Source: Cytophagaceae bacterium
GTDB taxonomy: Bacteria; Bacteroidota; Bacteroidia; Cytophagales; Flexibacteraceae
Assembly: GCA_027490155.1 (NCBI GenBank)
Contig: JAIXYP010000026.1
Location: forward strand, 1-58,927
DNA length: 58,927 bases
Direction of reading: 5' to 3'
Shown: positions 7,803-58,927 of the stretch, piece by piece
Layout: each line of letters opens with the position of its first letter
Numbering within the stretch: position 1 is the first letter of the stretch
Notes under the pieces: generated by a model
The model's input: only the letters and a program-made list of their open reading frames with translations
What the model was told of the DNA's origin: nothing
The model's database searches: none
Translations under genes and position numbers: made by a program

Positions 7803-7810
7803 TATCTTTG
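7803..7810 (+). promoter_or_regulatory. -7 promoter element of tatC
   Basis: TATCTTTG matches TAnnTTTG about 40 nt before the tatC start. No TTTG is present at the expected -33 position, so only the -7 half is supported. Confidence 0.4.
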
Positions 7811-7850
7811 TGGTTGGCTTCGTATTAAGGAGCTGCCCCTTACCGCTGTG

Positions 7851-8684: not shown

Positions 8685-8742
8685 ACTAGGTACTTCCTGA
8701 TCCTAGCCAATCACAAATTAGGCTATAGGAGGGTGCAAACTG

Positions 8743-9423
8743 CTATTTGCGGGATTTTTTTGGCCTGGTTTTGTTGTGCGATTTGTCTGCCTGGTTGTAT
8801 TTTTTGGGGTCCATCAGGGCTGGGTCTAGCTCCTTAGATATCCGCTCGCCAAATGGCTTACGTAGGTAATGTTGGCATTGGGCCGTGGGGTGAGCTTTAT
8901 AGTAGGCCTCGTCCACGCCATAAGTCGAGCAGCCAAGCAACAAACTATCTGTATTAAACTGCAGGATACAGACTGGGCAGTCGATCGGTATACAACCGTG
9001 CATTTGGCGTTCGTTATCGATGACAAGTTTTTTGGCCTCTACCTTTACCGGGATGGCCACCACCGCGGACATAATGTTGCCGAGCATACAATAGGCCCTG
9101 ATGTAAGGTAGTTTGGTGGTCCAGCCACGAGTCCGGACCAAATCCCAACGAAAAGCCTGCTCAAATGCAACACCTTTGGGCCTTGAGGGTTGGTTTTCCT
9201 GGATCTGTTTCAAGAAATCCTTATGTTCGTCTGCCTTCAGGACCTTCATTATCATCTTGATGAGCTCTTTTTCGGTAGGCATTTTGGCTAGGCCAGTCTC
9301 GACCGTGCTGCTGATGGGCCCAGCTGTAGTCTTTTTAGGTCTTAGGTACTGCGCATGGCATGGCAGACCAGCGCCTAGCAAAAGGCAGCAAAACAAGATC
9401 AGGTAGGCAGTAATACGACGCAT
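8743..9423 (-). CDS. Secreted hypothetical protein (226 aa)
   Basis: I do not recognise the family. The ATG at 9423 starts a clear Sec signal peptide (MRRITAYLILFCCLLLGAG...CHAQ). The longer frame back to a GTG at 9468 would bury it and is rejected. The mature part is mostly polar with a Cys cluster in its second half (CIPIDCPVCILQF and LLGCSTYG) that could form disulfides or bind metal. The C-terminus is very basic (KKSRK). A -7 promoter box lies only five bases upstream of the start, suggesting a leaderless message. It converges with tatC across a 58-nt gap. Confidence 0.8.
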   Translation of the reverse strand: MRRITAYLILFCCLLLGAGLPCHAQYLRPKKTTAGPISSTVETGLAKMPTEKELIKMIMKVLKADEHKDFLKQIQENQPSRPKGVAFEQAFRWDLVRTRGWTTKLPYIRAYCMLGNIMSAVVAIPVKVEAKKLVIDNERQMHGCIPIDCPVCILQFNTDSLLLGCSTYGVDEAYYKAHPTAQCQHYLRKPFGERISKELDPALMDPKKYNQADKSHNKTRPKKSRK

Positions 9424-9428
9424 AGCTA

Positions 9429-9436
9429 CAAAAGTA
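9429..9436 (-). promoter_or_regulatory. -7 promoter element abutting a start codon
   Basis: On the minus strand TACTTTTG matches TAnnTTTG and ends five bases before the ATG at 9423. If it is used, transcription would start at or within a base or two of the start codon. No -33 TTTG lies at the standard spacing. Confidence 0.45.
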
Positions 9437-9612
9437 GGCCAAACTGGGTCAAAGTCCGTAACAGCCACTGATGTCTAACTAACCTGTGTGGCCATAACGA
9501 ACCTGCTTATGGCTTGGCAAAGCCAATCTCAAAGGATGGGGTGCTTTGGTTTTGTGCCTGTTTTTTTGACAACTTGCTCCTAGTCCTCCCAACCAAACCC
9601 GTTAGATCGAGA

Positions 9613-10551
9613 ATGTTAAGTCACTTGGCCCAGATTCCCTTAGTCAAACTTCAGCACGAGGATCATGCACTTAGCTTTGCCATCAAGGAAATGGCTGATA
9701 TTGATGACGCCCACCAAGGTGCTATCGAACCACCGCATCGGCACAACTTTTATACCCTGATTTGGCATAAAAGTGGGGCAGGCGTCCATATCGTGGACTT
9801 TGTGCATTATGACCTAGCACCGAATCAAATCTACTTTTTGGCCCCGGGTCAGGTGCACCAGATAATAGGTCGAGGTCGTCCAGAGGGTTGGGTACTTTTG
9901 TTTACAAGGGATTTTATTGAGGAGGCAGGCTGGGCTTGGCAGCACTTTGTCCAGTTGGGCCTATACGATGCCTGCCAACAATTGCCACCCATCCAGGTTT
10001 TGCCGCCGGAGGTGGATTTGCTAGAAGGCCTCATGCGGTCCATCCAACAGGAGTTTTTGACTGTAGGGATCGAGACCAATGCGATGATCGCCTCCTTACT
10101 ACGGATGGTCCTCATCACCTGTTACCGACATAAACAACAACAGCTACAAGCACCAGGGGCCCTAATAACGGGGTCAAACCAGATAACGGAGGGGCCAAGT
10201 AGCCGTCAACAGCAGACAGTACAGCAGTTTATGTCCCTCGTTGAGGCGCAGCACCAGAAGTTGCATCAGGTTGGACAGTATGCCGAGTTGCTTAGTGTCT
10301 CAGCTGGGTACCTCAATGAGTTGATCAAGAGCCACACCGGGCGCACTGCTAAGGATGTCATTATGGATCGGCTGGTGCTGACGGCCAAAAGAGAGGCTCT
10401 TTTTACCGACCGCAGTAGCAAGGAAGTAGCCTTTGCCCTGGGGTTTGAGGATCCAGCTCATTTCAGCAAGTTTTTCAAGACCGCTACAGATACTACCTTT
10501 ATGGCCTACAGGCAGCAAGTCCGGTTGGGCACTGCTGCCGCCACTGCCTAA
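9613..10551 (+). CDS. AraC-family transcriptional regulator
   Basis: A 312-aa DNA-binding regulator. Residues about 1-150 form a cupin-like sensor (PHRHNFYTLIWHKSG, then LAPNQIYFLAPGQVHQI). The last 100 residues are the AraC double helix-turn-helix, with LLSVSAGYLNELIKSHTGRT as the first motif and the signature EVAFALGFEDPAHFSKFFK. The frame extends upstream to a TTG at 9514, but the ATG at 9613 begins just before the cupin and is preferred. The next gene, an EboC-like prenyltransferase, starts 27 nt downstream on the same strand, so this may regulate that gene and the following oxidoreductase. That link is inference from position only. Confidence 0.93.
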   Translation: MLSHLAQIPLVKLQHEDHALSFAIKEMADIDDAHQGAIEPPHRHNFYTLIWHKSGAGVHIVDFVHYDLAPNQIYFLAPGQVHQIIGRGRPEGWVLLFTRDFIEEAGWAWQHFVQLGLYDACQQLPPIQVLPPEVDLLEGLMRSIQQEFLTVGIETNAMIASLLRMVLITCYRHKQQQLQAPGALITGSNQITEGPSSRQQQTVQQFMSLVEAQHQKLHQVGQYAELLSVSAGYLNELIKSHTGRTAKDVIMDRLVLTAKREALFTDRSSKEVAFALGFEDPAHFSKFFKTATDTTFMAYRQQVRLGTAAATA

Positions 10552-10578
10552 TTTTACAGAAGCCTCTGGATCTAAGAT

Positions 10579-11526
10579 ATGCCACCATTGCCCCGCCGGT
10601 CTGCAACTGATAACTCGCCTCGTCAAAAAGGTATTAATACAACAGGGCAACTCACGGCATGGCTCCAGACGGTCCGTCCGGCCAATGTATTGACCTCAGT
10701 CGCAGATGGATGTGCGGGCTGGGCTGTGCTCTCGACATTGATGCCAGCAGAGGTTTTGAATTGGGCGCATCTACCATTTTTGTTATTGATGCATGCCTTG
10801 CTATACGCTGGTGGCATCATGATGAATGATGTCTTTGACGCAGAGCTGGATCGTAGGCAGCGGCCTGAAAGACCTATTCCAAAAGGTTTGCTCCAATTGT
10901 CGATGGTGCAGTATGTTGCGGTTGGCTTCCAAGCTACGGCGGTCGGGATTGGGTTATTGATGGACCTTTCGTATGGCCTATGGTCTTTGTTGATCATCGC
11001 AGCTACATACCTGTACAATGGTGGGGCGAAGAACCATCCCATATTGGGCCCTGCGGCGATGGGCCTTTGTCGATCCTTAAACTTTTTGTTGCCTCTGGCG
11101 ATTTCTGTCGAATATCTCAGCTATGCCATTCCGATAGGGGTACTGCCTTTGGCCTACATCGCGGGCATCACCCTTAGCAGTCGGTATGAGGTTGAGGGTG
11201 GAAGCAAAAGGCCCCAACTGGCAGCTATTGTGCTTTATCTTGGCGTCATTGCTGCCTTGACGGATCTTGCCCTTCAGCAACATAAACCCTACATTGCCAT
11301 TACTTTTATTATTGGATTTATTGTCTGGTTGATGCCAAAGGCTGTCAAAGCATGGCAAGACCCCCAGCCAATGACAATTAGGGGGGCGGTGCGGGCTGGC
11401 GTGCTTGGACTATTGTGGTACGATGCTGCCATCTGTGCCATCTATCAGCAATGGATTATGGGCCTAATTGTGGTAGCCCTTTTGCCTAACTGTATCCGGC
11501 TGGGTAAGAAGTATAGTGTTACTTAA
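10579..11526 (+). CDS. UbiA-superfamily prenyltransferase, EboC-like
   Basis: A 315-aa membrane protein with about eight or nine hydrophobic segments. The first Asp-rich motif, NDVFDAELDRRQRPERPIPKG (given in part: NDVFDAELDRRQRP), binds the prenyl diphosphate through magnesium. The second half has GPAAMGLCRSLNFLL and AGITLSSRYEVEGG. These match the pattern of the EboC branch, where a Glu-containing motif replaces the usual second DxxxD, better than ubiquinone or heme enzymes. In other bacteria EboC belongs to the eboABCDEF cluster, implicated in moving precursors to the periplasm. No other ebo genes are visible here. It lies between an AraC regulator (27 nt upstream) and an oxidoreductase (89 nt downstream). 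The UbiA fold is sure; the EboC branch is likely, and the substrate is unknown. Confidence 0.85.
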   Translation: MPPLPRRSATDNSPRQKGINTTGQLTAWLQTVRPANVLTSVADGCAGWAVLSTLMPAEVLNWAHLPFLLLMHALLYAGGIMMNDVFDAELDRRQRPERPIPKGLLQLSMVQYVAVGFQATAVGIGLLMDLSYGLWSLLIIAATYLYNGGAKNHPILGPAAMGLCRSLNFLLPLAISVEYLSYAIPIGVLPLAYIAGITLSSRYEVEGGSKRPQLAAIVLYLGVIAALTDLALQQHKPYIAITFIIGFIVWLMPKAVKAWQDPQPMTIRGAVRAGVLGLLWYDAAICAIYQQWIMGLIVVALLPNCIRLGKKYSVT

Positions 11527-11615
11527 TCATCTCATTTCGAGGGTAGTTTGGATGGACTATTCGTTCGTTCAGTTGCCCCAGACTACAACTTCCGTTAGAC
11601 AAAACAAAAACGCTT

Positions 11616-12773
11616 ATGACACTACATCGCAAACTCCGAATGGGAATGGTCGGTGGGGGCAAAGATGCCTTCATCGGTGGGGTCCACCGCATCGCCGCCT
11701 TTATGGACGGTGAAATCGACCTAGTCTGTGGAGCATTTAGCTCTAGTCCCGAAAAATCAAAAGCAAGTGGCGAGGCACTCTACCTAAAGCCTGAGCGCTG
11801 CTATGGCACGTATCAAGAGATGATATTGGCCGAAGCTAAACTTCCGGTGGGCGATCGGATGGACTTCCTTGCCATCGTGACACCCAATAATATGCACTAC
11901 GGCCCAGCAAAAATGGCCCTAGAGCATGGATTTGCTGTGGTGTGTGACAAACCTGTGGCTTTCACCCTAGCTGAGGCTGAGGAGCTTGCCAAGATTGTTG
12001 ATGCCAAAGGGGCAGTCTTTGCATTGACGCATAACTACACGGGCTATCCGATGGTCAAGCAGGCCCGCACGATGGTCAAGACAGGTGCGATTGGCAAGGT
12101 TCGCAAGGTCGTGGTCGAGTATCCGCAAGGATGGCTGGCAACACCGCTAGAAGGCACTGGTCAGAAACAAGCAGACTGGCGCACTGATCCTGCTCGCGCG
12201 GGCAAAAGCTGTTGTATGGGTGATATTGGCACGCATGCCGAAAACTTGGCGGAGTACATTACTGGGCTAGAAATCGACTCGCTTTGTGCCGATCTCAGCA
12301 CCTTTGTCGAAGGCCGTCCGCTGGACGATGATGGCAATGTGTTACTACGGTTCAGGGGTGGAGCCAAGGGGATTTTGTTTGCCAGCCAAGTAGCAGCAGG
12401 TGAGGAAAACAACCTCCGGATCAGGATCTGGGGCGAGACCGGAGGCCTAGAGTGGCACCAGCAGGAGCCGAACACCTTGCTAGTCAAACACCTTGATCGG
12501 CCAACTGAAATCTACCGGACCGGCGGGGGGTATCTATCCCCGATCGCTCAATTTAATACCCGCACACCAGCAGGCCACCCAGAGGGTTATCTTGAAGGTT
12601 TTGCGAACATCTACCGCAACTTTGCCCTAGCCCTACGACACAAATTAGCCACAGGCAAACTAAGTGATGAGCACGCCAACTTTCCATCGGTCCATGATGG
12701 GGTTAGGGGCATGAAATTCATCGATGCGGTCGTGGAAAGCAGTGCACAGAACGGTGCCTGGATCAAGGTTTAA
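11616..12773 (+). CDS. Gfo/Idh/MocA-family NAD(P)-dependent oxidoreductase
   Basis: A 385-aa cytoplasmic dehydrogenase, probably acting on a sugar or cyclitol. An N-terminal Rossmann fold (MGMVGGGKDAFIGGVHR) is followed by the family motif CDKPVAFT at about 108-115, where DKP replaces the commoner EKP. The C-terminal substrate domain contains the conserved block CCMGDIGTHAENL near 200 with the likely catalytic Asp/His. Length is normal. It follows the EboC-like gene by 89 nt on the same strand and is closed by a strong terminator, so the two may share a transcript. The substrate cannot be told from sequence. Confidence 0.92.
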   Translation: MTLHRKLRMGMVGGGKDAFIGGVHRIAAFMDGEIDLVCGAFSSSPEKSKASGEALYLKPERCYGTYQEMILAEAKLPVGDRMDFLAIVTPNNMHYGPAKMALEHGFAVVCDKPVAFTLAEAEELAKIVDAKGAVFALTHNYTGYPMVKQARTMVKTGAIGKVRKVVVEYPQGWLATPLEGTGQKQADWRTDPARAGKSCCMGDIGTHAENLAEYITGLEIDSLCADLSTFVEGRPLDDDGNVLLRFRGGAKGILFASQVAAGEENNLRIRIWGETGGLEWHQQEPNTLLVKHLDRPTEIYRTGGGYLSPIAQFNTRTPAGHPEGYLEGFANIYRNFALALRHKLATGKLSDEHANFPSVHDGVRGMKFIDAVVESSAQNGAWIKV

Positions 12774-12857
12774 CGATCCTGATTGTTCTTAATAACGATC
12801 GGTTTTATCTGTTACTTCAAGATCACTAGCCTGTATTTTACGTGCTAGATACTTCGT

Positions 12858-12893
12858 GGGTGCATCATCTTTGCGGATGATGCACCCTTTTTT
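12858..12893 (+). terminator. Intrinsic terminator after the oxidoreductase gene
   Basis: A 12-bp perfect stem (GGGTGCATCATC with GATGATGCACCC) and a 6-nt loop, followed by six T. Confidence 0.92.
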
Positions 12894-13029
12894 GGGTATA
12901 TTCGGAAGGGCGAACAACCTATTTAGACTTAACTTGGTCTATCTTGCAAATAGGCCTAGTTGAAAGGTCTCACCTTTGGAAAATCAATGCTAGGAGCTAG
13001 GCTATAGCGGTCGATCAAACCCGAAAATC

Positions 13030-15297
13030 ATGACTATTAGAGGATTGCTGTGTTTACTGTTTTGGATCACCAGCGCAACTTTGGTTTGGGCCCAACCAAC
13101 GGAAACTCAGTCCATCATGCCCAAATTTGGCAGTAGGTTGCAATGGCTGGCTCGGTATTTTGAAGGTAAAACCATTGAACAATTGCAGGATGGTCAGCCA
13201 AGTCAGGAGGTCATCTCTGCATATCGCCTAACCAAAAAAAATGGGCAGTGGCAGGTGCCGATTATCTTACGTGGTAGGCACCGCACCCAAATGCCTGACC
13301 TCAAAGATCTAAAATATGGCACCACTATCGGCAGCATAGCCAATGCATCTTTGCCAATTCAGTTACTTACCCAGCTAGCCAAAGACCAACTGCTCGTAAG
13401 TGCTGATGCAGTCAAGAAACTAGAGCCCTGCATGGAACGAGAAAGGATCGAAACAAGGGCGGATAGGGTACAGGCTGGTATCATCAACAATACGCCCTAC
13501 CTCGGCACTGGGGTCATGGTCTCGATCATTGATGTGGGGTTTGACTATTTACACCCCAACTTTTTGGATACTGGCGGCACGCGTTCACGAATCCATAAAG
13601 TCTGGGACCAACTACGCGAACAAGGCAATCCACCCACTGGCTATGACTATGGCAGCGAATGGACAACGTTTCAGGACCTAGAGATCGCCCAATCTGATAC
13701 GTTTACTGCCTTCACCCATGGCGCACACACAGCAGGCATTGCCGCTGGTGGAGGGTATTTAACGCAGGGGTTCTACAAAGGAATCGCCCCAGATGCCGAC
13801 CTAATCCTTGTGCCAACTGATTTTTATAATGACCATGTTCTGGATGCCATCGTTTATAGTCATACACAGGCCAATGCCCTTGGTAAACGTTGTGTCGTGA
13901 GCATGAGTTTTGGTGGATGGGGTGGTCCTATGGATGGCTCTGACCTGTATGACATGGCCATGGATAGCCTCGCTACCCAGCTAACACCTAACCCAATCTT
14001 GGTGGCAGCCATGGGCAACGAAGGTGACTTCACCAGCTATGTAGAGCATACTGCCCAGTTTGGTGCTGATACCTTACGGACTTTTTTGGGCTTTAATCGG
14101 AAGAGTAATTTCTATAATGGTGAGCCACATACCGAGTTTTGGGCACCTCAAGGTCAGCCTATTCAGTTCAGGGTTAGCGTTTGGGATAGTACAGGGTTCT
14201 GCAAACGGCGTTATCCTTGGCATAACACAACTCGCAATAGCCCCTACACCCTTGAGCCTTTCTGGAAGGATGGAACCGATAGTTTTTTTGTTGGTATCCA
14301 GATTGATAGTAGCTATACAACCAATAAGGCGCAACACTTTTTACTCCATACTAAACCTTGGTCGCTAGACCATTATCTCTCTGTTGAGATCGTGTCTCAG
14401 CCTGGGGTTAGGGTATATGGCTTTAATCCCTTTTTTCAATTTTGGGATCGACCTGGTCGGTTTGCGAATCGGGTGCCGGGTTTCTTGAATGGTATGCGAC
14501 GGAATAACTACCGCAGCCCTGGTGGGACTTGCCAATATGTAACATCTGTGGGCGCTTATGTATCTAGAAACAAGTTTATCAATCTGGCAGGCAACATCCA
14601 GCTAGCACCGCCAGAGGATACCATTGTTGGGCAACTAGGAGCATTTAGCAGCCGCGGGCCAGGGCTTGGTCGGGCGGCGTTTGGGGTCAAGCCAACTGTG
14701 GTGGCACCTGGTCGGATTGTGTTGAGCTCACTTAGTTCCTTTGCCAATGATGACCCAGCGATTTTGGTCCGTCAGGTGACCTACCAAAGCATAGGCTATC
14801 CTTATGGGGGTATTTCGGGAACAAGTATGGCAACACCTATGGTAGGTGGCGCTGTGGCTTTGCTCCTCCAAGCCTATCCAACCCTCACTAGTGAGCAAGT
14901 GATGCGGATTTTGGCACTAACAGCCCGTAAGGATAACTTCACAGGTCCGCTTAGCACACCAGCCTTTGATTGGGGCTCTGGTAAGCTCGATATTGAGGAG
15001 GCAATCAGGCAAGCAGGTGCCATCACAGGCATCGGCACCCCTGCCAAGCCTGCTCATTTTGCAGGGAAATCTTGGGCTTTGGTGCCTAATCCTGCACATA
15101 GTAGCGTCCGTGTGCTGTCAGATGATGGTCTTATGAGCCAAATTTTTGTCATCAATTTTACCGGCCAAATGATTGTGCAATTGAGCCAAAATCAGTCTGA
15201 GGTGCAGTTAGACATAAGTAGTTGGCCAAGTGGTCTTTACAAAGTCATCAGGACCAACGCTCAAGGCACCCAGACCACTAGCCTAGTTGTTAGGTAG
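13030..15297 (+). CDS. Secreted subtilisin-like (S8) serine protease with T9SS sorting domain
   Basis: A 755-aa exported protease. The signal peptide ends near ATLVWAQ. The catalytic triad is visible: Asp in MVSIIDVGFDYLHPNF (about residue 165), His in THGAHTAGIAAGGG (about 235) and Ser in GISGTSMATPMVGG (about 600). An insertion of roughly 190 residues sits between the oxyanion region (AAMGNEG) and the Ser motif, as in many Bacteroidota S8 enzymes. The C-terminal 80 residues (ALVPNPAHSSVRV...) form a type A sorting domain, so it should pass the outer membrane by T9SS. It is monocistronic and precedes pyrG by 117 nt, with a separate pyrG promoter in between. Confidence 0.94.
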   Translation: MTIRGLLCLLFWITSATLVWAQPTETQSIMPKFGSRLQWLARYFEGKTIEQLQDGQPSQEVISAYRLTKKNGQWQVPIILRGRHRTQMPDLKDLKYGTTIGSIANASLPIQLLTQLAKDQLLVSADAVKKLEPCMERERIETRADRVQAGIINNTPYLGTGVMVSIIDVGFDYLHPNFLDTGGTRSRIHKVWDQLREQGNPPTGYDYGSEWTTFQDLEIAQSDTFTAFTHGAHTAGIAAGGGYLTQGFYKGIAPDADLILVPTDFYNDHVLDAIVYSHTQANALGKRCVVSMSFGGWGGPMDGSDLYDMAMDSLATQLTPNPILVAAMGNEGDFTSYVEHTAQFGADTLRTFLGFNRKSNFYNGEPHTEFWAPQGQPIQFRVSVWDSTGFCKRRYPWHNTTRNSPYTLEPFWKDGTDSFFVGIQIDSSYTTNKAQHFLLHTKPWSLDHYLSVEIVSQPGVRVYGFNPFFQFWDRPGRFANRVPGFLNGMRRNNYRSPGGTCQYVTSVGAYVSRNKFINLAGNIQLAPPEDTIVGQLGAFSSRGPGLGRAAFGVKPTVVAPGRIVLSSLSSFANDDPAILVRQVTYQSIGYPYGGISGTSMATPMVGGAVALLLQAYPTLTSEQVMRILALTARKDNFTGPLSTPAFDWGSGKLDIEEAIRQAGAITGIGTPAKPAHFAGKSWALVPNPAHSSVRVLSDDGLMSQIFVINFTGQMIVQLSQNQSEVQLDISSWPSGLYKVIRTNAQGTQTTSLVVR

Positions 15298-15351
15298 GGA
15301 CCTCGTAATCGCAGAATTAGGTGTACATTATCTGGTAAGACGCTGATTAAG

Positions 15352-15382
15352 TTTGCCAGTACGGCCCATTGGACTACCTTTG
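15352..15382 (+). promoter_or_regulatory. Promoter of pyrG (full Bacteroidota consensus)
   Basis: TTTG (15352-15355), then exactly 19 nt, then TACCTTTG (15375-15382): a perfect fit to TTTG-N19-TAnnTTTG. It lies 32 nt before the pyrG ATG. Confidence 0.8.
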
Positions 15383-15396
15383 TATCCCGTAACTAA

Positions 15397-17034
<1,638 letters not shown>

Positions 17035-45586: not shown

Positions 45587-46591
45587 CTATCCGACTACTA
45601 GTTGGCCTTCCAGGATCAAGGTTTCGGGGGCTATGGTCTGTTTGCGTCCTGCCTTGAGCCGCAGAATGAGCCTTTCGGCTGCCAGGTGGCCCAATTCGTA
45701 TCCACTATGTCTATAATGATCTAGGTTTGGAGAAAGGATGGAGGGTAAATGTCCATCACTGATGCCGATCACTTTGGGTTTATGTTTGTTATCTCCTGTT
45801 GTTGTGTTGATGGCTGCATATACACCAGCTGACAACTCGTCACTCATACAAAAAAAGGCATCGACCTCATAGTTGCCTAGCCAGTCGATGACCAAAGAAG
45901 TGCATTGGTCTTGACTTTTGGCATGGATTATATAGGTGCTATTAGGACCATTAGATAATAAGTTAGCCTCCACCATTGCACGTTGAAATCCTTGGTGCCT
46001 AAGTTGGCTCATCTGCAACTGTTGGTCGCCAAGTACGGCACAAATCTTGGTAGCGCCTGCCTTGATCAGGTAGCTGACACATTGGTAGGCAGCTTCTTCA
46101 TCATCAATCATGACCTGGTCAAATTGGGTTTGTTCGATGCTTTTGTCAAACAAGACGATCGGCACGGCAGCAGCTTCGAGCTCCTGAAGGTGGTCTAGGT
46201 CCTTGGTCTGAGCCGAGAGGGAGATCAAGATGCCATCAATGGATAGGTCAGCGCAAACCCTTAGGTTAGCAACCTCGCCTGCCAAGGCATTTTGAGACTG
46301 TAGGACTAGTAATTGGTATCCGTTGGCACTAACAACATCTTCTATCCCTTTAATAAGAGACGGGAAGAAGAACATCGTGATCTCTGGTATGATCAATGCA
46401 ATGAGGCCGCTGCGGTTGTTGCGGAGGTTGACGGCGGTTAAGTTTACATGATAATTGAGGGCCTGTGCCACCTGCCTTACCTCCTCCTTGACCTTGTCAG
46501 AAATGTCTGGATGGTCATTGAGTGCCCGCGAGACGGTAGACGGACTAACCCCTAGCTGTGAGGCGATATCCTTGATGGTGGCTCTTTTCAT
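45587..46591 (-). CDS. LacI-family transcriptional regulator of the adjacent sugar locus
   Basis: A 334-aa regulator. The N-terminal helix-turn-helix reads TIKDIASQLGVSPSTVSRALN (in part: DIASQLGVSPSTVSRAL) at 4-25, with the hinge YHVNLTAVNLRNNRSG. The remaining 270 residues form the periplasmic-binding-protein-like sensor (IALIIPEITMFFFPSLIKGIEDV, VDAFFCMSDELSAGVYAA, VIGISDGHLPSILSPNLDHYRH). It is divergent from the TonB receptor gene, and two LacI-type half-palindromic sites lie in the 303-nt region between them. Effector is probably the sugar handled by the locus. Confidence 0.95.
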   Translation of the reverse strand: MKRATIKDIASQLGVSPSTVSRALNDHPDISDKVKEEVRQVAQALNYHVNLTAVNLRNNRSGLIALIIPEITMFFFPSLIKGIEDVVSANGYQLLVLQSQNALAGEVANLRVCADLSIDGILISLSAQTKDLDHLQELEAAAVPIVLFDKSIEQTQFDQVMIDDEEAAYQCVSYLIKAGATKICAVLGDQQLQMSQLRHQGFQRAMVEANLLSNGPNSTYIIHAKSQDQCTSLVIDWLGNYEVDAFFCMSDELSAGVYAAINTTTGDNKHKPKVIGISDGHLPSILSPNLDHYRHSGYELGHLAAERLILRLKAGRKQTIAPETLILEGQLVVG

Positions 46592-46778
46592 GGTGGGTAT
46601 AGTGTGCTAGCCTATGACTTGGCCAAGGTCTTCCCCCAGATCTAGAAGTAGGGTAAGGGCCAAGGCCAGAGGATGTAGGGCACAATAGTAACAGATTTGG
46701 TCAGTAATTGGGGGCTTTAAGCCAGTACTTCAGATAAAATCAATGCTGGCAAGGCGAATGCAGAAAATAATTTTTGAC

Positions 46779-46816
46779 CGCAAACGGTACCGCAAACGAT
46801 TGCGGAAACGTTTGCG
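46779..46816. promoter_or_regulatory. Tandem LacI-type operator sites
   Basis: CGCAAACGATTGCG (46791-46804, arms CGCAA/TTGCG) and the AAACGTTT palindrome within GGAAACGTTTGC (46805-46815) are adjacent, with a third CGCAAACGG half-site at 46780. The central CG step and AAACG half-sites are typical of LacI-family operators. They lie upstream of the receptor gene's putative -33 box, so either repression or activation is possible. Confidence 0.75.
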
Positions 46817-46837
46817 TAAAAAATTGATAATCAGGAC

Positions 46838-46869
46838 ATTGTAATTCAGAAACAAGTCCGATATGTTTA
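46838..46869 (+). promoter_or_regulatory. Probable promoter of the TonB receptor operon
   Basis: ATTG (46838-46841), 20 nt, then TATGTTTA (46862-46869); both boxes are one base off consensus. The receptor ATG is 26 nt downstream. Confidence 0.45.
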
Positions 46870-46894
46870 CCTCACCAATTAACCAAAATCACAA

Positions 46895-49555
46895 ATGAAA
46901 AAGTCTTTACAGCTAGTGGTGCTCATCCTGATGGGCATCATTCCTCACCTACTGATCCCGACGGAGTCCTTAGGACAGGCCGCAGGTTCAGGAAAAATCA
47001 GCGGTCGTGTTACAAGTAAATCGGGTGAGGCAGTGCCCTTTGCGACCGTTTATATACTTCAACCTGCTGTTAACGCTGCCGCTGATACGGGTGGTAATTA
47101 TATCCTGAAGCGTGTTCCAGCTGGTACCCACAAGGTTGTAGCCTCGTTCTTAGGTTACAAAAAGCAAACCCAAGAGGTAACCATCGTCGCAGACCAAAAC
47201 CTAAGCCTTGACTTTGTGTTGGACGAGGAAGGGTCTGTGACCAATGAAGTTATCGTGACAGGTAACCTGAACCCCAAAACGGCACTTGAGTCAAGTATAT
47301 CTGTGAGTACCATTAAGGAGTCACAGGTCAACGAAACAGCCCCTCGGTCCACTGCCGAAATTCTTCGTTCGATTCCTGGCCTGAAATCAGAGGCTTCGGC
47401 AGGGGAGGGGAACACCAACATTACTGTCCGGGGTGTGCCGATTGCAACTGGTGGATCTAAATTTTTGCTATTGCAGGAAGATGGCTTGCCAATCCTCCAG
47501 TTTGGGGACATCGCCTTTGGTACTGCTGATATCTTTATGCGGGCGGATAACACGATCAGTCGGATTGAGGCCCTACGTGGTGGGTCTGCCTCGACAATGG
47601 CTAGTAACTCGCCAGCGGGTATCATCAATTTTATCAGCAAAACTGGCAAAACTGCCGGCGGAAGTGTAGCTACAACAGTTGGGGTGGACTACAATAACTT
47701 CCGTACTGATTTCGAATACGGCGCGCCGATTGGCAATGGCTGGTCTATGCACGCGGGCGGCTTTTATCGTCTAGGCGATGGACCCCGCCGCACCAATTTT
47801 ACATCTAGCAACGGTGGTCAGTTTAAGGCAAACCTGACTAAAGAGTTCGACCGTGGGTATGCCCGCATTTATGTAAAATTCCTCAATGACAGGACCCCTG
47901 CCTATATGCCGATGCCAATAGAGGTGTCGGGTACCAATGCATCACCAACTTGGTCCTCTGCCTCTGGTTTCAGTGCTCTTACTGGTGCCCTCCAGAGTCC
48001 AAACTTGCTTAATAGTATTGGTACGGGCCCAGATGGTAACATCAGGCGTAGCAATGTAGGTGACGGCATCAATCCGGTTTCCTCTGCCATCGGATCCGAG
48101 TTTTCGTTTGACCTGGGCGAAGGTTATAGCATCGAGAACAAAAACAGATTCTCTTTCAACAGCGGTAATTTTATTGCCCCCTTCCCAGCCCAAGTGACTG
48201 ATGCTGCCACAATGCTTAATAGTATTGGTGGAGCAGGAGCGCGCTTGACCTATCTGGATGGCGGTGCCTACCCTGCTAATGCCAACGGCAATGATTTGTT
48301 GATGCGTGTCCACATGTTTGACACCAAACTCAACAACTTTAATAACTTCAGCAATGACCTGACCTTGAGCAAATCATTTGGTCGGACAAATATCCATGCT
48401 GGGGTATATAAGGCTTTCCAAACGATCAGTATGTCATGGCTTTGGGCTAGCTATTTGATGGATGTTAATGATAAAGGTGGACGTCTACTCAATGTCAACA
48501 ATGCAGCGGGTACTAGCCTAACAGACAACGGATTGCTGGCTTATGGTACGCCATTTTGGGGCAACTTGCACCGGAACTATGATACTCAATATGACATCAC
48601 GGCACCATATGCTAACGTTGAGGTTAATGTAACGGATGCACTAACAGTTGACCTTGGTGGTCGTTGGGATATCGGCAAGGTCTATGGTACTTATGCTGGG
48701 GCCAACATCAAGCAAGTTGATGTCAATGGCGATGGCCAGATCTCGGTAGCCGAGCAGACTGTTGAGGTCATTGACAATACAAAGGTTAATCCTGTCAACT
48801 ATAATTATGATTACCTGTCCTACTCAGCTGGTGCTAACTATCGTTTGACGGAGAATATGGCTGTTTTTGGTCGTTATAGCCAAGGTGCCCGTGCTAATGC
48901 TGATCGGCTCTTGTTTGGTCCTTATGTTCGGCCAGATGGCTCGGCTGTGGATGGTCTGAAGGCAGATGTCATCACACAGGCTGAGGCGGGTTACAAGCTC
49001 CGCAAAGCCCACTACACGATCAATGCGACTGCTTTCTTGGCCAATATCAACGAGCAGAACTATGAGGCTACTACACAGCTGACCGTCAACCGTGCTTACA
49101 GGTCGTTCGGCCTTGAACTGGATGGTATGGCTGAGTATGGCAACTTTAGCCTCCGTGGTGGTTTGACCTTGACCAACTCAAAAATTGTGCGCGATGAAAT
49201 CAATAGCGCACAAGAGGGTAAAACCCCACGTCGCCAATCGCCTTATATCTTCCAGATTATGCCGTCCTACAAATCCAAGGCACATTCTGTTGGCTTTAGT
49301 GCCATTGGTACTGGTCCGTCCTTCGCACAGGATAACAATGACCTTGTGATGCCGGGTTATGCCTACATCAATGCCTTTGTCAACATAGCGCTTACCAAGG
49401 GATTGACCCTATCATTCAATGCCAATAATATCTTTAATCAGATTGGCATTACCGAAAGTGAAGATGGTTCGATTGTCGAAAACCAACGAAATATCGTCAG
49501 GGCCCGCTCTATCGCTGGTCGGACCATTTCTTCGAGTCTGCGATTCTCGTTCTAG
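46895..49555 (+). CDS. TonB-dependent outer-membrane receptor with carboxypeptidase-regulatory-like domain
   Basis: An 886-aa outer-membrane transporter for energy-coupled uptake. The signal peptide (LVVLILMGIIPHLLIPTESLGQ) is followed by a CarboxypepD_reg-like domain (about 34-115, GRVTSKSGEAVPFATVYI...GNYILKRVPAGTHKVV). The plug follows at about 125-255 (SVSTIKESQVNETAPRS, LRSIPGLKSEAS, ITVRGVP, NSPAGIINFISKTG). The rest is a beta barrel ending in SSLRFSF. No SusD-like partner gene follows, so it is not a classical SusCD pair. It is the first gene of the LacI-linked locus and should import the oligosaccharide whose hydrolase and porter are encoded next. Confidence 0.94.
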   Translation: MKKSLQLVVLILMGIIPHLLIPTESLGQAAGSGKISGRVTSKSGEAVPFATVYILQPAVNAAADTGGNYILKRVPAGTHKVVASFLGYKKQTQEVTIVADQNLSLDFVLDEEGSVTNEVIVTGNLNPKTALESSISVSTIKESQVNETAPRSTAEILRSIPGLKSEASAGEGNTNITVRGVPIATGGSKFLLLQEDGLPILQFGDIAFGTADIFMRADNTISRIEALRGGSASTMASNSPAGIINFISKTGKTAGGSVATTVGVDYNNFRTDFEYGAPIGNGWSMHAGGFYRLGDGPRRTNFTSSNGGQFKANLTKEFDRGYARIYVKFLNDRTPAYMPMPIEVSGTNASPTWSSASGFSALTGALQSPNLLNSIGTGPDGNIRRSNVGDGINPVSSAIGSEFSFDLGEGYSIENKNRFSFNSGNFIAPFPAQVTDAATMLNSIGGAGARLTYLDGGAYPANANGNDLLMRVHMFDTKLNNFNNFSNDLTLSKSFGRTNIHAGVYKAFQTISMSWLWASYLMDVNDKGGRLLNVNNAAGTSLTDNGLLAYGTPFWGNLHRNYDTQYDITAPYANVEVNVTDALTVDLGGRWDIGKVYGTYAGANIKQVDVNGDGQISVAEQTVEVIDNTKVNPVNYNYDYLSYSAGANYRLTENMAVFGRYSQGARANADRLLFGPYVRPDGSAVDGLKADVITQAEAGYKLRKAHYTINATAFLANINEQNYEATTQLTVNRAYRSFGLELDGMAEYGNFSLRGGLTLTNSKIVRDEINSAQEGKTPRRQSPYIFQIMPSYKSKAHSVGFSAIGTGPSFAQDNNDLVMPGYAYINAFVNIALTKGLTLSFNANNIFNQIGITESEDGSIVENQRNIVRARSIAGRTISSSLRFSF

Positions 49556-49652
49556 CACCTGGTATGGTTCTGGGCCAAGTTCTTGGGTGGACTTGGCCTT
49601 TGACCATTCTGGTGACATACTTCATTCTCACTTCTTATCAATCGATGGTTAT

Positions 49653-50936
49653 ATGTCTAGAGCAGCATCAAATAATAGTGATGAAGCCATGGCTGAGGCC
49701 TGGCGTGTGCTTAATAGTTGTATAGCGCAACAAACTGATGGTCTGGGTACCATATTGATTAAGGGTTTATACGCCTCCGACCTAGACCGTGATAACTATA
49801 AACGCATCTGGGCACGCGATGCCATGATTGCGGGTTTAGCCATTGTGCTTACTCCAAAATCTGGTAATGAACTGAAGGATGCTTTTCGGGCCTCTGTTTT
49901 GGCTTTGGCCTCGCAGCAAGCGGCAAATGGTCAAATTCCGTCTAATATCGGTATTGGTCCTGATGATAAACCAAGCTATGGGTCATTAGTTGGGCGGGTA
50001 GATGCAACAACATGGTGGATTATTGGTGCCTGTATATTAGGTGCTCAGGATCCGGACATTAAAATGCAATTGGCTGCCCCTGTCGCCAAGGCCATAGAGA
50101 TGCTCAAGGCATGGGAGTTTAACCAGCGTGGGCTGCTTTATACTCCGCTAGGTGGCAATTGGGCAGACGAATATCTAGTACAGGGATATACCCTTTATGA
50201 CAACTGTTTGTACTTGTGGGCGTTGCGGGCAGCTGCAAAGGTCTATAGCACAGTAGGCTATATGGAACAAGCGGCGACTTTAGAGCGTACTATCGTGGCT
50301 AATTATCTCCCTGGAGGATTCGATCAATCGAGCATAATCCATCCCACAGCTTATGCCGATGCCAACCAACAAATGCCTGATGGACCTTACTTCTGGTGTT
50401 GTTTCGGTCCGCAGGGATATGACACTCGTTGGGATATGGCTGGCAATGCATTGGCTTTGCTGCTGGGGTTGCATCCTGACCCAGATAAGTTGGTGGCATT
50501 TTTGTCATCAATGGCAAAAGGCCAAGGACATTGGTTGTTGCCTGTATTCAGCCCGGTGGTTGAGCCTACAGATTGGCAATGGCAATTGTTAAGACTCAAT
50601 TATACGCATGCGTTTAAGAATCAGCCACACCATTTCCATAACGGCGGGTGTTGGCCTGTTTTTATGGGGATGCTGTCATTAGGGCTTGCTGCTAATTGTG
50701 TTACTGCGCTTTCGGCAACAATCGAAAGTCAGATCATTGATGCCCTTAATGCGGAGGTGCCACCCTATTCGTTCCATGAATATTGGACTACTGACCATCA
50801 ACAACCATCTGGCGTATCTCCCTTGGCCTATACTGCAACAGGGACAATTTTGGCTTGCCTAGCAGCTCAGTATCAATCAAAGCAAGTAGTACCAAACCTA
50901 ACATCGATTCTTTGTAATGACAACCGAAAAGATTGA
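49653..50936 (+). CDS. (alpha/alpha)6-barrel glycoside hydrolase, GH100 (neutral invertase)-like
   Basis: A 427-aa protein without a signal peptide, hence cytoplasmic. Motifs in order: RIWARDAMIAG (51-61, the IW.RD motif of the catalytic Asp region), LVGRVDATTWWII (112-124), YTLYDNCLYLWAL, FHNGGCWPVFMG near 330, and a C-terminal FHEYWTTDHQQPSGVSPLAYTATG. They match by memory the order of alkaline/neutral invertases (GH100), whose block reads HNGG.WP. A glycogen-debranching-like (GH133) relative is the main alternative. The frame extends upstream into the receptor gene; the ATG at 49653 is chosen as it follows the receptor stop by 97 nt. It overlaps the downstream kinase gene by 20 nt. Probably splits sucrose or a related glycoside. 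Confidence 0.75.
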   Translation: MSRAASNNSDEAMAEAWRVLNSCIAQQTDGLGTILIKGLYASDLDRDNYKRIWARDAMIAGLAIVLTPKSGNELKDAFRASVLALASQQAANGQIPSNIGIGPDDKPSYGSLVGRVDATTWWIIGACILGAQDPDIKMQLAAPVAKAIEMLKAWEFNQRGLLYTPLGGNWADEYLVQGYTLYDNCLYLWALRAAAKVYSTVGYMEQAATLERTIVANYLPGGFDQSSIIHPTAYADANQQMPDGPYFWCCFGPQGYDTRWDMAGNALALLLGLHPDPDKLVAFLSSMAKGQGHWLLPVFSPVVEPTDWQWQLLRLNYTHAFKNQPHHFHNGGCWPVFMGMLSLGLAANCVTALSATIESQIIDALNAEVPPYSFHEYWTTDHQQPSGVSPLAYTATGTILACLAAQYQSKQVVPNLTSILCNDNRKD

Positions 50937-51576
50937 ATTAAGACCTTCATTTCTGACGCTAGGAAAAACTTTAGTTTCAGAAATTATAGGGTTTTATCCT
51001 TCATTATCAACTGGGGGGCAGCCTAAGCTTGTGATCGGGATTGCAGGGGAGTCTGGCAGTGGGAAATCAGTTACGGCCCTAGTGCTAAAACACGTTTTGG
51101 CGGAGGCTGGTATTAGGTCTGTCGTACTTTCCATTGATAACTACTTCAAATTAGCTCCTAAGCAAAATGACCTAGCAAGGCGCCAGAATATTGATCAGGT
51201 TGGGCCTTCAGAGGTCCGATTGGCATTGCTGCAGGCGCACCTATTTGCTTTTGTGGCTGGGCATACGGCCATTGTCGTTCCAGTAACTGATTATGCCAAT
51301 GATCGATTTGAACGTGAGGTTATTGACCTTGAAGATGTGGATGTCTTGATTGTGGAAGGAACATATGTCTATATGTTGGATGGTATTGATCGGTTGGTGT
51401 TTCTGGACCATAACTATAAGGACACCCATGCGCAGCGCCTAGCCCGTAACAGGGACAAAATGGATGACTTTGTGGAGCAGGTTCTGGAGATCGAACACAA
51501 GATCATCAGCGAGGGGAGGCAAAAAGCTGATTTTAGGATTACTACTGACTACCAAGTTAACTTCGTGCAACGATGA
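50917..51576 (+). CDS. Uridine-kinase-like P-loop kinase in the sugar locus
   Basis: A 219-aa cytoplasmic kinase of the uridine kinase/phosphoribulokinase superfamily. Walker A is GESGSGKS (44-51). A substrate-side Asp in LSIDNYFKL follows, then the Walker B-like VDVLIVEGTYVY, and the lid contains HAQRLARNRDK. The N-terminus (about 1-30) is extended relative to Udk. It overlaps the hydrolase gene by 20 nt and the porter gene by 4 nt, so it is surely co-transcribed with them. Uridine would be an odd substrate here. Phosphorylation of a sugar released by the hydrolase is more sensible by context, but this is inference. Confidence 0.85.
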   Translation: MTTEKIELRPSFLTLGKTLVSEIIGFYPSLSTGGQPKLVIGIAGESGSGKSVTALVLKHVLAEAGIRSVVLSIDNYFKLAPKQNDLARRQNIDQVGPSEVRLALLQAHLFAFVAGHTAIVVPVTDYANDRFEREVIDLEDVDVLIVEGTYVYMLDGIDRLVFLDHNYKDTHAQRLARNRDKMDDFVEQVLEIEHKIISEGRQKADFRITTDYQVNFVQR

Positions 51577-52874
51577 TGCGACCTCGCCTTAAGTTTTGGC
51601 AAATTTGGAACATGAGCTTTGGTCTGCTCGGTATCCAGTATGCCTTTGGGCTGCAGCAAGCCAATATGAGCCCTATATATCGGTATTTGGGTGCTGATGA
51701 GGCCTCAATCCCATGGCTTTGGCTTGCAGGCCCAATAACTGGTTTGATCATCCAGCCTATTATTGGTGCTATGAGCGATCATACCTGGCACCCTAGATGG
51801 GGTAGGAGGAGGCCTTATTTTGCTATTGGGGCGGTGTTGACGAGCATTGCCTTGGTCTTGATGCCTTATTCATCCTCGCTCTGGATGGCAGCAGCTTTGC
51901 TTTGGCTGCTGGATGGTGCTGCTAACATCACGATGGAGCCTTTCCGGGCCCTGATTGCTGACAATTTACCAGAAGAGCAACGTGTGACGGGATTTTCGTT
52001 GCAGAGCTTTTTTGTCGGGATGGGGCAAACTTTAGCCAACCTGATGCCGCTGATTTTGGTTGGTGTTGGCTTTTCGGTCCAGTCAATGTCTGGGTCTGAC
52101 AGGATTCCGGATTTCGTTAAGTGGTCCTTTATCATTGGGGCGGTATCGATCTTGTTTTCGGTTGGGGTGACGATTTTCACGACCAAGGAATATCCTCCTA
52201 CCGACCAAGAACGGACTAAGCCACGAACGCCAATTTTTACTGAAATATTTGCGGCTATCCGCGAGATGCCTAAAGTGATGAAACAACTTTGGTGGGTCAA
52301 GTTTTTTACTTGGTTTAGCCTGCCGCTGATGTGGCAATACTTGGCCATCGCGATTGCTGAGCGTTGTTTTGGTGCCACCGAGCCTTCAGATCCTGGGTTT
52401 GCTGATGGTGTAAAGTGGGGCAACTTGGGTTTGGCGATCTTTAATGTGGCCTGTTTTGTTTTCTCGATGTTTTTGCAGCCATTATCAGCCCGTATGCAAC
52501 CCAAAAACATCCATGCATTAGCCTTGGTATTGGGCGGCGTTGGTTTTATTTCGATGGAGGTATCTACGCATCAATACCATTTTATGATAGGGATGGCGAT
52601 GGTTGGTGTGGCTTGGGCCTCGATTATGTCCACACCGTATGTGATTTTGTCAGGCGGTGTGCCAGCTAGTAGAATGGGCGTTTATATGGGGATATTTAAC
52701 ATGTTTATTGTCATCCCGCAGATTTGCAACATGGTCTTGATCCCGTTCATCTATAATAATCTGTTAGGCGGTAGCCCGATCCATGCACTGTGCTTTGCTG
52801 GCATTTCGTTGCTAGTGGCGGGTTGGTTTAGCTATCGGCTTAGGTTATCGCCTGAGGACCAAGTAACTATTTAA
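51573..52874 (+). CDS. MFS sugar porter of the SLC45/GPH (sucrose or maltose) type
   Basis: A 433-aa inner-membrane transporter with about 12 helices. The start (FWQIWNMSFGLLGIQYAFGLQQANMSPIYRYLG, given in part: GLQQANMSPIYRYLG) and the loop SDHTWHPRWGRRRPYF with its RWGRRRP motif are those of cation-coupled sucrose/maltose-type symporters. It overlaps the kinase gene by 4 nt (ATGA) and is the last gene of the locus. It should import the sugar from the periplasm after the TonB receptor passes it across the outer membrane. Substrate is inferred from context. Confidence 0.88.
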   Translation: MMRPRLKFWQIWNMSFGLLGIQYAFGLQQANMSPIYRYLGADEASIPWLWLAGPITGLIIQPIIGAMSDHTWHPRWGRRRPYFAIGAVLTSIALVLMPYSSSLWMAAALLWLLDGAANITMEPFRALIADNLPEEQRVTGFSLQSFFVGMGQTLANLMPLILVGVGFSVQSMSGSDRIPDFVKWSFIIGAVSILFSVGVTIFTTKEYPPTDQERTKPRTPIFTEIFAAIREMPKVMKQLWWVKFFTWFSLPLMWQYLAIAIAERCFGATEPSDPGFADGVKWGNLGLAIFNVACFVFSMFLQPLSARMQPKNIHALALVLGGVGFISMEVSTHQYHFMIGMAMVGVAWASIMSTPYVILSGGVPASRMGVYMGIFNMFIVIPQICNMVLIPFIYNNLLGGSPIHALCFAGISLLVAGWFSYRLRLSPEDQVTI

Positions 52875-56355: not shown

Positions 56356-56625
56356 GACCTCAAAGTTGGTGATTGGAACGGGATTGGCAAGGGGGGGTAC
56401 AGCTAAAGGGGACCCATGGCTATTGCGTGATTGTAAACGCAATGAATAGCTATCCGGATTATCTGCCGGAATGTATGGCGCGAATTAGTTACGTAGATGA
56501 TGATTTTGGTAGCGGTGTCTTTTAATAATTTAATTAAATAATGAAATATTTGTAAAAGATTAAATACATACTTAGTTATTGCAGGCGAAGCCTGCTATTG
56601 GTTCAGATTTACTTATGACGACTTA
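56356..56625. other. AT-rich flank (possible leader) before the CRISPR array
   Basis: 270 nt with no gene. The part from about 56520 to 56580 is very AT-rich (TTAATAATTTAATTAAATAA). A perfect hairpin GCAGGC-GAA-GCCTGC sits at 56581-56595, 31 nt before the first repeat. No sequence complementary to the repeat (an anti-repeat for a tracrRNA) was seen here. Whether this is the leader or the distal end is not decided. Confidence 0.5.
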
Positions 56626-58927
56626 GTTGTGAATTGGTCTCAAACCTAGTAGATTCGCAACAGGCCGATATAGAGACAAGCCAAACGAAGCGTTGTGAAT
56701 TGGTCTCAAACCTAGTAGATTCGCAACCGTTGTCAGTGGCCAAGGTTGCAACATTGAGTTGTGAATTGGTCTCAAACCTAGTAGATTCGCAACACCACTT
56801 GTAAATACAGCACCAGTTGCTGTGTTGTGAATTGGTCTCAAACCTAGTAGATTCGCAACTCAGCGGCAAAATCTTAGGCACGTTCCTAGTTGTGAATTGG
56901 TCTCAAACCTAGTAGATTCGCAACATATTCGTTGTAAAGCTCAATCTTAAACCGAGTTGTGAATTGGTCTCAAACCTAGTAGATTCGCAACGAGCGGCTT
57001 ACCTTACTAGTTGGTGACGGTGTTGTGAATTGGTCTCAAACCTAGTAGATTCGCAACTGGCGAAAGGTTATGTGCCTAGGACTGTAAGTTGTGAATTGGT
57101 CTCAAACCTAGTAGATTCGCAACAAGAATTAGCCGATGCCCAAGCGTTACAAGGTTGTGAATTGGTCTCAAACCTAGTAGATTCGCAACGAGCAATGAAA
57201 CCGTACTACCTACTAGACAGTTGTGAATTGGTCTCAAACCTAGTAGATTCGCAACGACGCCATTTATTACCACACGTTGGCCTTTGTTGTGAATTGGTCT
57301 CAAACCTAGTAGATTCGCAACTTATACTTTGGAGTGCTACCCAAAGGCTAAGTTGTGAATTGGTCTCAAACCTAGTAGATTCGCAACAAAGGCAAGCCAC
57401 AACAGCAAGCAGGATGTGTTGTGAATTGGTCTCAAACCTAGTAGATTCGCAACAATTCACCTTTGCCGAGTTCATCGAATTGCGTTGTGAATTGGTCTCA
57501 AACCTAGTAGATTCGCAACGTGGGATTAATAAGTAGGGACATAGCAGATTGTTGTGAATTGGTCTCAAACCTAGTAGATTCGCAACAGTAACTTTATTAG
57601 CCTTTGCAATGTTCGGGTTGTGAATTGGTCTCAAACCTAGTAGATTCGCAACGAAGGCGAAGAAACGATCGACACCTTGCGTGTTGTGAATTGGTCTCAA
57701 ACCTAGTAGATTCGCAACATCCTCTGACACCAACAAAGCAACGGCATCGTTGTGAATTGGTCTCAAACCTAGTAGATTCGCAACATCGCCTTGAACTGAT
57801 AACGACATATCGCCGTTGTGAATTGGTCTCAAACCTAGTAGATTCGCAACAGACTGTTTTGGGCAACTAGTATCTGGCAAGTTGTGAATTGGTCTCAAAC
57901 CTAGTAGATTCGCAACGAACGTGGCTGACAAGAAGCGAGACATCAAGTTGTGAATTGGTCTCAAACCTAGTAGATTCGCAACTTAGCCATTAAAGAACAA
58001 AGACACGAGCACGTTGTGAATTGGTCTCAAACCTAGTAGATTCGCAACCGGTGATGTGGTAACCTTGAACGCCATTACGTTGTGAATTGGTCTCAAACCT
58101 AGTAGATTCGCAACTCAGCACCATTTGAGCCAACATAAACGTTTGTTGTGAATTGGTCTCAAACCTAGTAGATTCGCAACACATTTGCTTTTTATGGCCA
58201 TGAAATTAGTGTTGTGAATTGGTCTCAAACCTAGTAGATTCGCAACGACTAATATTTTTTGGAGTCAAGCCACGCAGTTGTGAATTGGTCTCAAACCTAG
58301 TAGATTCGCAACCTACAACATCAGGGGCTATATGCTGACAGCGTTGTGAATTGGTCTCAAACCTAGTAGATTCGCAACGTTTGGTTATCTAGTTTGGCAA
58401 AGTAAATAGTTGTGAATTGGTCTCAAACCTAGTAGATTCGCAACCAAAGCTAGTGAGAGTCCCTGACAGTTTTTGTTGTGAATTGGTCTCAAACCTAGTA
58501 GATTCGCAACACATACCATGGAATTTGATACAGCACACATGTTGTGAATTGGTCTCAAACCTAGTAGATTCGCAACCAAGCTAGTACATGGTATTACCCA
58601 TCGCATGTTGTGAATTGGTCTCAAACCTAGTAGATTCGCAACTATAAGCCTATATTGGTATATGTTGTTGCTGTTGTGAATTGGTCTCAAACCTAGTAGA
58701 TTCGCAACTATTGGAAGTTTGTAAACACCGTCCAAGATGTTGTGAATTGGTCTCAAACCTAGTAGATTCGCAACTTCGTAAGAATAGTGCTATTGCGACA
58801 GCTAGTTGTGAATTGGTCTCAAACCTAGTAGATTCGCAACGCAGCACCGCCGAACAAATCCTTGGCGGCAGTTGTGAATTGGTCTCAAACCTAGTAGATT
58901 CGCAACTGGTACATATTAGCGCCCTCA
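56626..58927. CRISPR. CRISPR array, 35 visible repeats, truncated by the window end
   Basis: A 36-nt repeat, from GTTGTGAATT to ATTCGCAAC at its ends, occurs 35 times from 56626 to 58906, all copies identical by eye. The 34 complete spacers are 30 nt except three of 29, 31 and 31 nt. A 35th spacer is cut at 58927. The repeat ends are inverted copies of each other (GTTGTGAAT versus GTTGCGAAT on the other strand). No cas gene lies within the window, so cas genes should lie to the right if they are adjacent. The 36/30 architecture and CAAC end fit type VI-B (Cas13b) and also some Bacteroidota type II-C arrays; the 5' half resembles II-C repeats. Class is undecided. The identical repeats and distinct spacers suggest a recently active array. 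Confidence 0.97.

What the first reader, a model, noticed from the sequence alone, without database searches (positions are those of the whole stretch)
56626..58927. Long, intact CRISPR array without visible cas genes; II-C or VI-B not decided
The array has 35 identical 36-nt repeats and 34 complete distinct spacers of about 30 nt. The repeat begins GTTG and ends CAAC with near-symmetric ends, which is the architecture of type VI-B (Cas13b) arrays. Its first half, GTTGTGA.TTG.T.TCAAA, instead resembles Bacteroidota type II-C repeats, which are often longer (about 47 nt). A repeat combining the two patterns could belong to an uncommon subtype.
Basis: partly seen in the sequence, partly recalled or inferred. 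Interest (0 to 1): 0.72.

Follow-up and report, generated by a model that had tools for sequence, protein, structure and literature searches.

The report
Ordinary type II-C CRISPR-Cas9 array
The long repeat array at the end of this sequence is the memory bank of a standard bacterial CRISPR-Cas9 immune system whose genes lie on another piece of the same genome, so it is ordinary rather than a new hybrid type.

Summary
The array is real and as described: 35 identical 36-nt repeats (56626-58906) and 34 distinct 29-31-nt spacers, cut off by the contig end. The cas genes are missing only because the contig stops inside the array. Contig C34 of the same genome begins inside an array with the same repeat (two more copies), followed 52 nt later by cas2, cas1, a 1101-aa Cas9 with RuvC and HNH motifs, and a tracrRNA gene that pairs with repeat positions 1-16. 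This is the II-C gene set. Genome searches found one cas1, one full Cas9 and no Cas13b. Among 42 arrays near Cas9 genes of the same order (this one included), 17 repeats have 36 nt and 25 have 45-48 nt; 38 start GTTGTG, 14 end CAAC, and one other 36-nt repeat has both GTTG and CAAC ends. The "hybrid" look is ordinary II-C variation. Side result, unproven: a Bacteroidota-type promoter (TTG, then TAnnTTTG) is enriched at repeat positions 23-25 in these repeats. Verdict: new member of a known kind, low interest.

The parts
56626..58906 (+). CRISPR array: 35 identical 36-nt repeats GTTGTGAATTGGTCTCAAACCTAGTAGATTCGCAAC with 34 complete spacers of 29-31 nt; crRNA sense is the + strand
   Evidence: the sense strand follows from the tracrRNA, which pairs with repeat positions 1-16
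58907..58927 (+). first 21 nt of a 35th spacer, cut by the contig end; the array resumes on contig C34 (L031:1-125: 24 nt of another spacer, repeat, 29-nt spacer, repeat)
   Evidence: that C34 follows is inferred
56541..56625 (+). flank before the first repeat, holding a small hairpin (56581-56595, GCAGGC-GAA-GCCTGC). [quoted passage not shown]
   Evidence: folding no better than shuffles (-11.8 against a mean of -12.3 kcal/mol), the hairpin is not in the best fold once the first repeat is included, and no terminator was found

Best explanation
The array is the spacer memory of a complete type II-C CRISPR-Cas9 system split by an assembly break. Order across the break: array (window end, crRNA sense +), 2 more repeats on C34, cas2, cas1, cas9 (all on the minus strand, convergent with the array), and a tracrRNA gene read divergently from cas9. 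Shown by sequence: genes, their order, anti-repeat, terminator-like hairpins. Inferred from studied relatives: Cas1-Cas2 insert new spacers at the cas2-side end (on C34), so the window holds the older spacers. The array is transcribed on + toward cas2, probably from promoters inside the repeats, and stops at a terminator just before cas2. Each crRNA pairs with the tracrRNA through GUUGUGAAUUGGUCUC, and Cas9 cuts matching foreign DNA next to a PAM not yet known.
For: The exact repeat occurs 37 times in the genome (up to 3 mismatches allowed, all found have 0), only at the end of C27 (35) and the start of C34 (2). C34 carries cas2 (L031:178-549), cas1 (498-1403) and cas9 (ATG at 4701, 1101 aa) by curated models: TIGR01865 E 2.2e-164, TIGR03639 type II Cas1 4e-68, TIGR01573 Cas2 6.4e-15; PADLOC agrees. 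RuvC (GLDLGANSLGW, IHLELAREAA, HHALDALVVA) and HNH (DVDHIIPQ, NKVLCLASEN) motifs can be read (motif names recalled); relatives in the PDB are Cas9s. Anti-repeat at L031:4742-4757, 15 of 16 matching; repeat-tracrRNA duplex -27.5 kcal/mol, 0 of 500 shuffles as low; best-pairing site outside the array in 20 kb of C34 and window 1-56500. Two stem-loops and a T-run follow it. One cas1 and one full Cas9 found in the genome. crRNA strand opposite to cas2 in 38 of 39 arrays of the order where cas2 was found, this one entered by hand.
Against: The join C27-C34 is inferred: the contig ends do not overlap, and the two partial spacers (21 and 24 nt) are different, so at least one repeat is missing between them. 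The one same-genus genome could not confirm the join. No convincing spacer target was found, so past activity is not shown from spacers. No expression data.
Confidence: 0.96

Rival explanations
1. Type VI-B array: the repeat serves a Cas13b nuclease that targets RNA.
For: 36-nt repeat with GTTG...CAAC ends; II-C and VI-B repeats share the leader-distal GTTGT motif in F. columnare and a similar sharing is stated for other species (PMC8092290, passages).
Against: No Cas13b by NF038190 in a genome given as 100% complete (its control rang in 1 of 14 genomes and below the cut-off, so sensitivity is weakly shown). The repeat pairs with a tracrRNA beside cas9, which VI-B does not use (recalled); an array with this repeat adjoins cas2-cas1-cas9.
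Confidence: 0.02
2. Shared array: a II-C array whose spacers or Cas1-Cas2 also serve a second CRISPR system in the cell, as proposed for Flavobacterium columnare II-C and VI-B.
For: Such cooperation is described in F. columnare (PMC8092290, passages).
Against: One cas1 and one full Cas9 in the genome and no Cas13b match; the repeat occurs nowhere else in it with up to 3 mismatches. Other effector families and other arrays were not searched.
Confidence: 0.02

Closest known systems
Riemerella anatipestifer type II-C CRISPR1 (PMC5006608, PMC6008519; passages)
   Same: cas9, cas1 and cas2, array next to cas2, 16-nt anti-repeat TGAAAGCAATTCACAA upstream of cas9 (here CGAGACCAATTCACAA), spacers of about 30 bp
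   Different: 47-bp repeat there, 36 here; 107-bp putative leader between cas2 and the array there, 52 nt with a terminator-like hairpin here; spacer acquisition was shown there, not here
Flavobacterium columnare and F. psychrophilum II-C (PMC8092290, PMC10309648; passages)
   Same: II-C loci of Flavobacterium (phylum Bacteroidota); F. columnare repeat also 36 bp and starting GTTGT; a TTG near the start of the repeat is proposed there as part of a repeat-encoded promoter
   Different: other species and loci; F. columnare also has VI-B and parD/parE genes; PAMs are reported there, unknown here
   Same: 36-nt repeat GTTGTGATTTGCTTTCAACAAACGATCTTTGACAAC, GTTG and CAAC ends, array opposite to and 117 nt from cas2, cas9 in the same locus
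   Different: different second half of the repeat; another family of the order

Membership tests
CRISPR-Cas type II-C | Cas9 with RuvC and HNH nuclease domains | tested here: met
CRISPR-Cas type II-C | cas1 and cas2 of the type II kind in the operon | tested here: met
CRISPR-Cas type II-C | no csn2 (II-A) or cas4 (II-B) in the operon | tested here: met
   no room for a further gene between cas9 and the array; the next gene beyond the tracrRNA (L031:5169-6491) has no PADLOC match. Not searched genome-wide
CRISPR-Cas type II-C | tracrRNA with an anti-repeat matching the repeat | tested here: met
   by sequence and predicted pairing only; transcription not shown
CRISPR-Cas type II-C (as found in this order) | array downstream of cas2, crRNA strand opposite to cas2 | tested here: met
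   for this locus (the long part of the array is joined by inference); 38 of 39 arrays with a cas2 in the order, this one entered by hand
CRISPR-Cas type II-C | RNA-guided DNA cleavage | not testable with these tools
   needs an assay
CRISPR-Cas type VI-B | cas13b gene | tested here: not met
   0 matches in the window's genome (control weak: 1 of 14, below cut-off)
CRISPR-Cas type VI-B | array beside cas13b, without a tracrRNA | tested here: not met
   array beside cas2-cas1-cas9 with a tracrRNA

The most novel reading that the evidence does not exclude
Many II-C repeats of this order are themselves housekeeping promoters of the Bacteroidota type: TTG at repeat positions 2-4 as the -33 element and TAnnTTTG at positions 23-25 as the -7 element, so that crRNAs start at about the repeat-spacer border (in 36-nt repeats) and run toward the newest spacers. 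The passages that I saw propose only the TTG half for Flavobacterium repeats. In this genome's own repeat the -7 element is TAGATTCG (5 of 6; reached by 1.6% of shuffles of its second half).
Probability: 0.5. Interest if true: 0.3.

Novelty: new member of a known kind. Interest (0 to 1): 0.12.

Why it matters
It settles a false alarm: repeat length and ends (36 nt, GTTG...CAAC) did not tell II-C from VI-B here, and the missing cas genes were an assembly effect. The 1101-aa Cas9 is distant from the relatives measured (at most 45% identity over a piece, in 15 other genomes of 98 searched) and its PAM is unknown, so it could interest people who collect Cas9 variants. The repeat-promoter pattern is a small testable point about how II-C arrays are expressed in Bacteroidota.

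Tried and rejected
Repeat catalogue: none at hand. The exact repeat was absent from genome contigs (the window's own or very near records may be left out) and, with up to 3 mismatches, from the other 389 of 390 genomes drawn from the order.

Cas9 in genome contigs: 12 stretches matched a pattern, none encoded a relative, so the organism has no name here. Cas1 in 'phages' gave 4 records and Cas9 in 'plasmids' 57 records, all under 60% identity: no help.

Flanks as a test of the join: the peptidase-like gene before the array and the gene after the tracrRNA were sought in 11 genomes of the family, the own one included. In the one same-genus genome (G001) both genes run off contig ends on the side facing the CRISPR region, so it neither confirms the join nor shows an empty site; its lack of a Cas9 match is not secure for the same reason.

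Spacer targets: the 3'-terminal 19 or 20 nt of 7 of the 37 spacers known (35 complete, 2 partial) were each scanned in viral contigs. Six gave nothing. One (spacer 30) hit two near-identical phage contigs, in a gene that looks like a tail tape-measure protein (recalled, not searched), but only 23 of 30 bases match overall. I put the chance of at least one such hit in 7 scans at a few tenths (rough estimate with an assumed collection size), and read in the phage frame the spacer has a stop codon (by hand). Not accepted. One spacer (34) in 'phages': no match. The other spacers were not searched.

Upstream hairpin as a terminator or shield against an extraneous crRNA (idea from PMC12080349): not supported; the first repeat is also unmutated.

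Full report
Observation. The window ends in a CRISPR array: 35 exact copies of GTTGTGAATTGGTCTCAAACCTAGTAGATTCGCAAC from 56626 to 58906, separated by 34 different spacers (31 of 30 nt, 2 of 31, 1 of 29), then 21 nt of a further spacer. The window is the whole of contig C27 of a 3.99-Mb, 69-contig genome, so the array is cut by the assembly.

Where the rest is. The same 36-mer occurs 37 times in the genome: 35 at the end of C27 and 2 at the start of C34, same strand, 0 mismatches. C34 starts with 24 nt of a spacer, then repeat, 29-nt spacer, repeat. The two partial spacers differ, so at least one repeat is missing in the gap (inference). That the contigs are neighbours is an inference from the two truncated array ends, the only places where this repeat is found.

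The cas genes. On C34, minus strand, lie cas2 (L031:178-549), cas1 (498-1403) and cas9 (ending at 1396, ATG at 4701; 1101 aa). NCBIfam names them type II Cas9 (TIGR01865, 2.2e-164), type II Cas1 (TIGR03639, 4e-68) and Cas2 (TIGR01573, 6.4e-15), and PADLOC agrees. RuvC and HNH motifs can be read in the protein (which motif is which is recalled). The 42 distinct PDB sequences matched are Cas9s or pieces of them by their names, one being called only 'HNH endonuclease domain protein'. Genome searches found one cas1 and one full Cas9 (one search counts 2 matches for this genome, of which one is shown, above the cut-off; the other is not in the rows listed). No csn2 or cas4 lies in the operon; the next gene beyond the tracrRNA has no PADLOC match.

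tracrRNA. At L031:4742-4757 (+ strand), just upstream of cas9 and divergent from it, CGAGACCAATTCACAA matches the reverse complement of repeat positions 2-17 in 15 of 16 bases. Downstream are two stem-loops and a run of T (83 nt folded, -31.1 kcal/mol, z -3.7). The repeat-tracrRNA duplex, repeat positions 1-16, is -27.5 kcal/mol against a shuffle mean of -17.3 (0 of 500 as low), and the site is the best outside the array among 15,284 stretches scanned over 20 kb of C34 and window 1-56500, both strands. Of 14 loci compared, 9 including this one carry such an anti-repeat followed by TAA (in L078 as the second of two equal matches); 3 gave no match at up to 3 substitutions and 2 gave matches unlike a tracrRNA.

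Is the repeat odd? I fetched 53 further Cas9 loci of the same order (15, 38) out of 55 other genomes over the model's cut-off among 390 searched; the two left out were G084 and G178. With this locus, 39 of 54 gave 42 arrays by my finder, and 15 gave none; four candidate arrays were dropped for too few copies or unfit length. Repeats of 36 nt: 17 of 42; 45-48 nt: 25 of 42. Start GTTGTG: 38 of 42. End CAAC: 14 of 42. L131 is the only other 36-nt repeat with GTTG and CAAC ends. L067 and L069 share GTTGTGAATTGGT with this repeat. The crRNA strand is opposite to cas2 in 38 of 39 arrays where cas2 was found, this one entered by hand; 35 of the 38 others lie within 1.5 kb downstream of cas2; the array on the same strand is a second, 4-repeat array in L067; in 3 arrays no cas2 was found. 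So the window's repeat is a plain II-C repeat of this order. The sequence itself was found in this genome alone among 390 of the order.

VI-B. NF038190 (Cas13b) has no match in the genome (its control rang in 1 of 14 genomes, below the cut-off).

How it works. Acquisition at the cas2-side end is shown in R. anatipestifer (PMC6008519, passages), and acquisition through the last repeat is stated for II-C in general by PMC12080349 (abstract and passages); by analogy the newest spacers here are on C34 and the window holds the older ones. Transcription toward that end from repeat-borne promoters is reported for II-C, and for Flavobacterium a TTG 33 or 35 bp before each spacer is proposed as part of one (PMC8092290, PMC10309648, passages). 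Against this, the R. anatipestifer authors found no promoter in their repeats (PMC5006608, passages). A 15-bp perfect hairpin running into five T (L031:129-170) lies between the last repeat and cas2 and would end array transcripts. In 29 of the 36 unique repeats with enough flank, a terminator-like hairpin follows the array in 12 (0.7 expected from shuffles) and precedes it in 3 (0.9 expected); some of the 12 are weak and three are one related motif, and convergent genes often carry such hairpins (recalled), so I do not read more into it.

Repeat promoter. TAnnTTTG at -7 with TTTG near -33 is the consensus of the main Bacteroides sigma factor; the -7 part was also seen in Flavobacterium johnsoniae, the -33 part not (PMC7366714, passages). 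In the repeats after position 16, a match of at least 5 of 6 occurs in 20 of 36 unique repeats (shuffles 6.3, sd 2.2, 0 of 1000 as many), and in 9 of 17 after clustering at 75% (shuffles 2.9, sd 1.5, 0 of 1000). Controls: reversed 5 of 36 and 2 of 17; other strand 1 of 36 and 0 of 17. Sixteen of the 36 sit at positions 23-25, 18-20 nt after the TTG that all 36 have at 2-4. An earlier run with 14 repeats agreed. This genome's repeat matches 5 of 6, which 1.6% of shuffles of its second half reach. Against it: only 4 of 36 match all 6 bases; 16 of 36 reach no 5 of 6; relatedness is only partly removed by clustering; and in 46-nt repeats the start would fall inside the repeat. Searches for TAnnTTTG with CRISPR (5 papers) and for repeat-encoded promoters, type II-C and Bacteroidetes (21 papers holding two of three terms, 8 listed) listed nothing that names this -7 element in repeats, but I saw passages of only three of these papers.

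Spacer targets. None accepted; 7 of 37 spacers were searched.

Verdict. An ordinary, complete II-C system split over two contigs: new member of a known kind, low interest.

Noticed in passing
L031:129-170 (contig C34): A 15-bp perfect hairpin running into five T lies between the last repeat and cas2; its arm holds GTTGTGA, the first 7 bases of the repeat. Terminator-like hairpins follow the array in 12 of 29 compared II-C arrays of the order, this one included.
   Followed up: partly
window 45587-52874: LacI-type regulator, TonB-dependent receptor, GH100 invertase-like protein, PRK-like kinase and MFS transporter in a row: looks like a sugar (perhaps sucrose) uptake and use cluster (function inferred).
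   Followed up: no
L067 (genome G072), 6328-15587: II-C locus with cas9 inverted relative to cas1-cas2 and a second, 4-repeat array with the same repeat on the other side of cas9.
   Followed up: no
L064 (genome G080), 8281-11630: cas9 is split into two overlapping open frames (337 and 816 aa) beside a normal-looking array: perhaps a broken gene or a sequencing error.
   Followed up: no
window 994-7578, - strand: A 2194-aa open reading frame, not examined.
   Followed up: no
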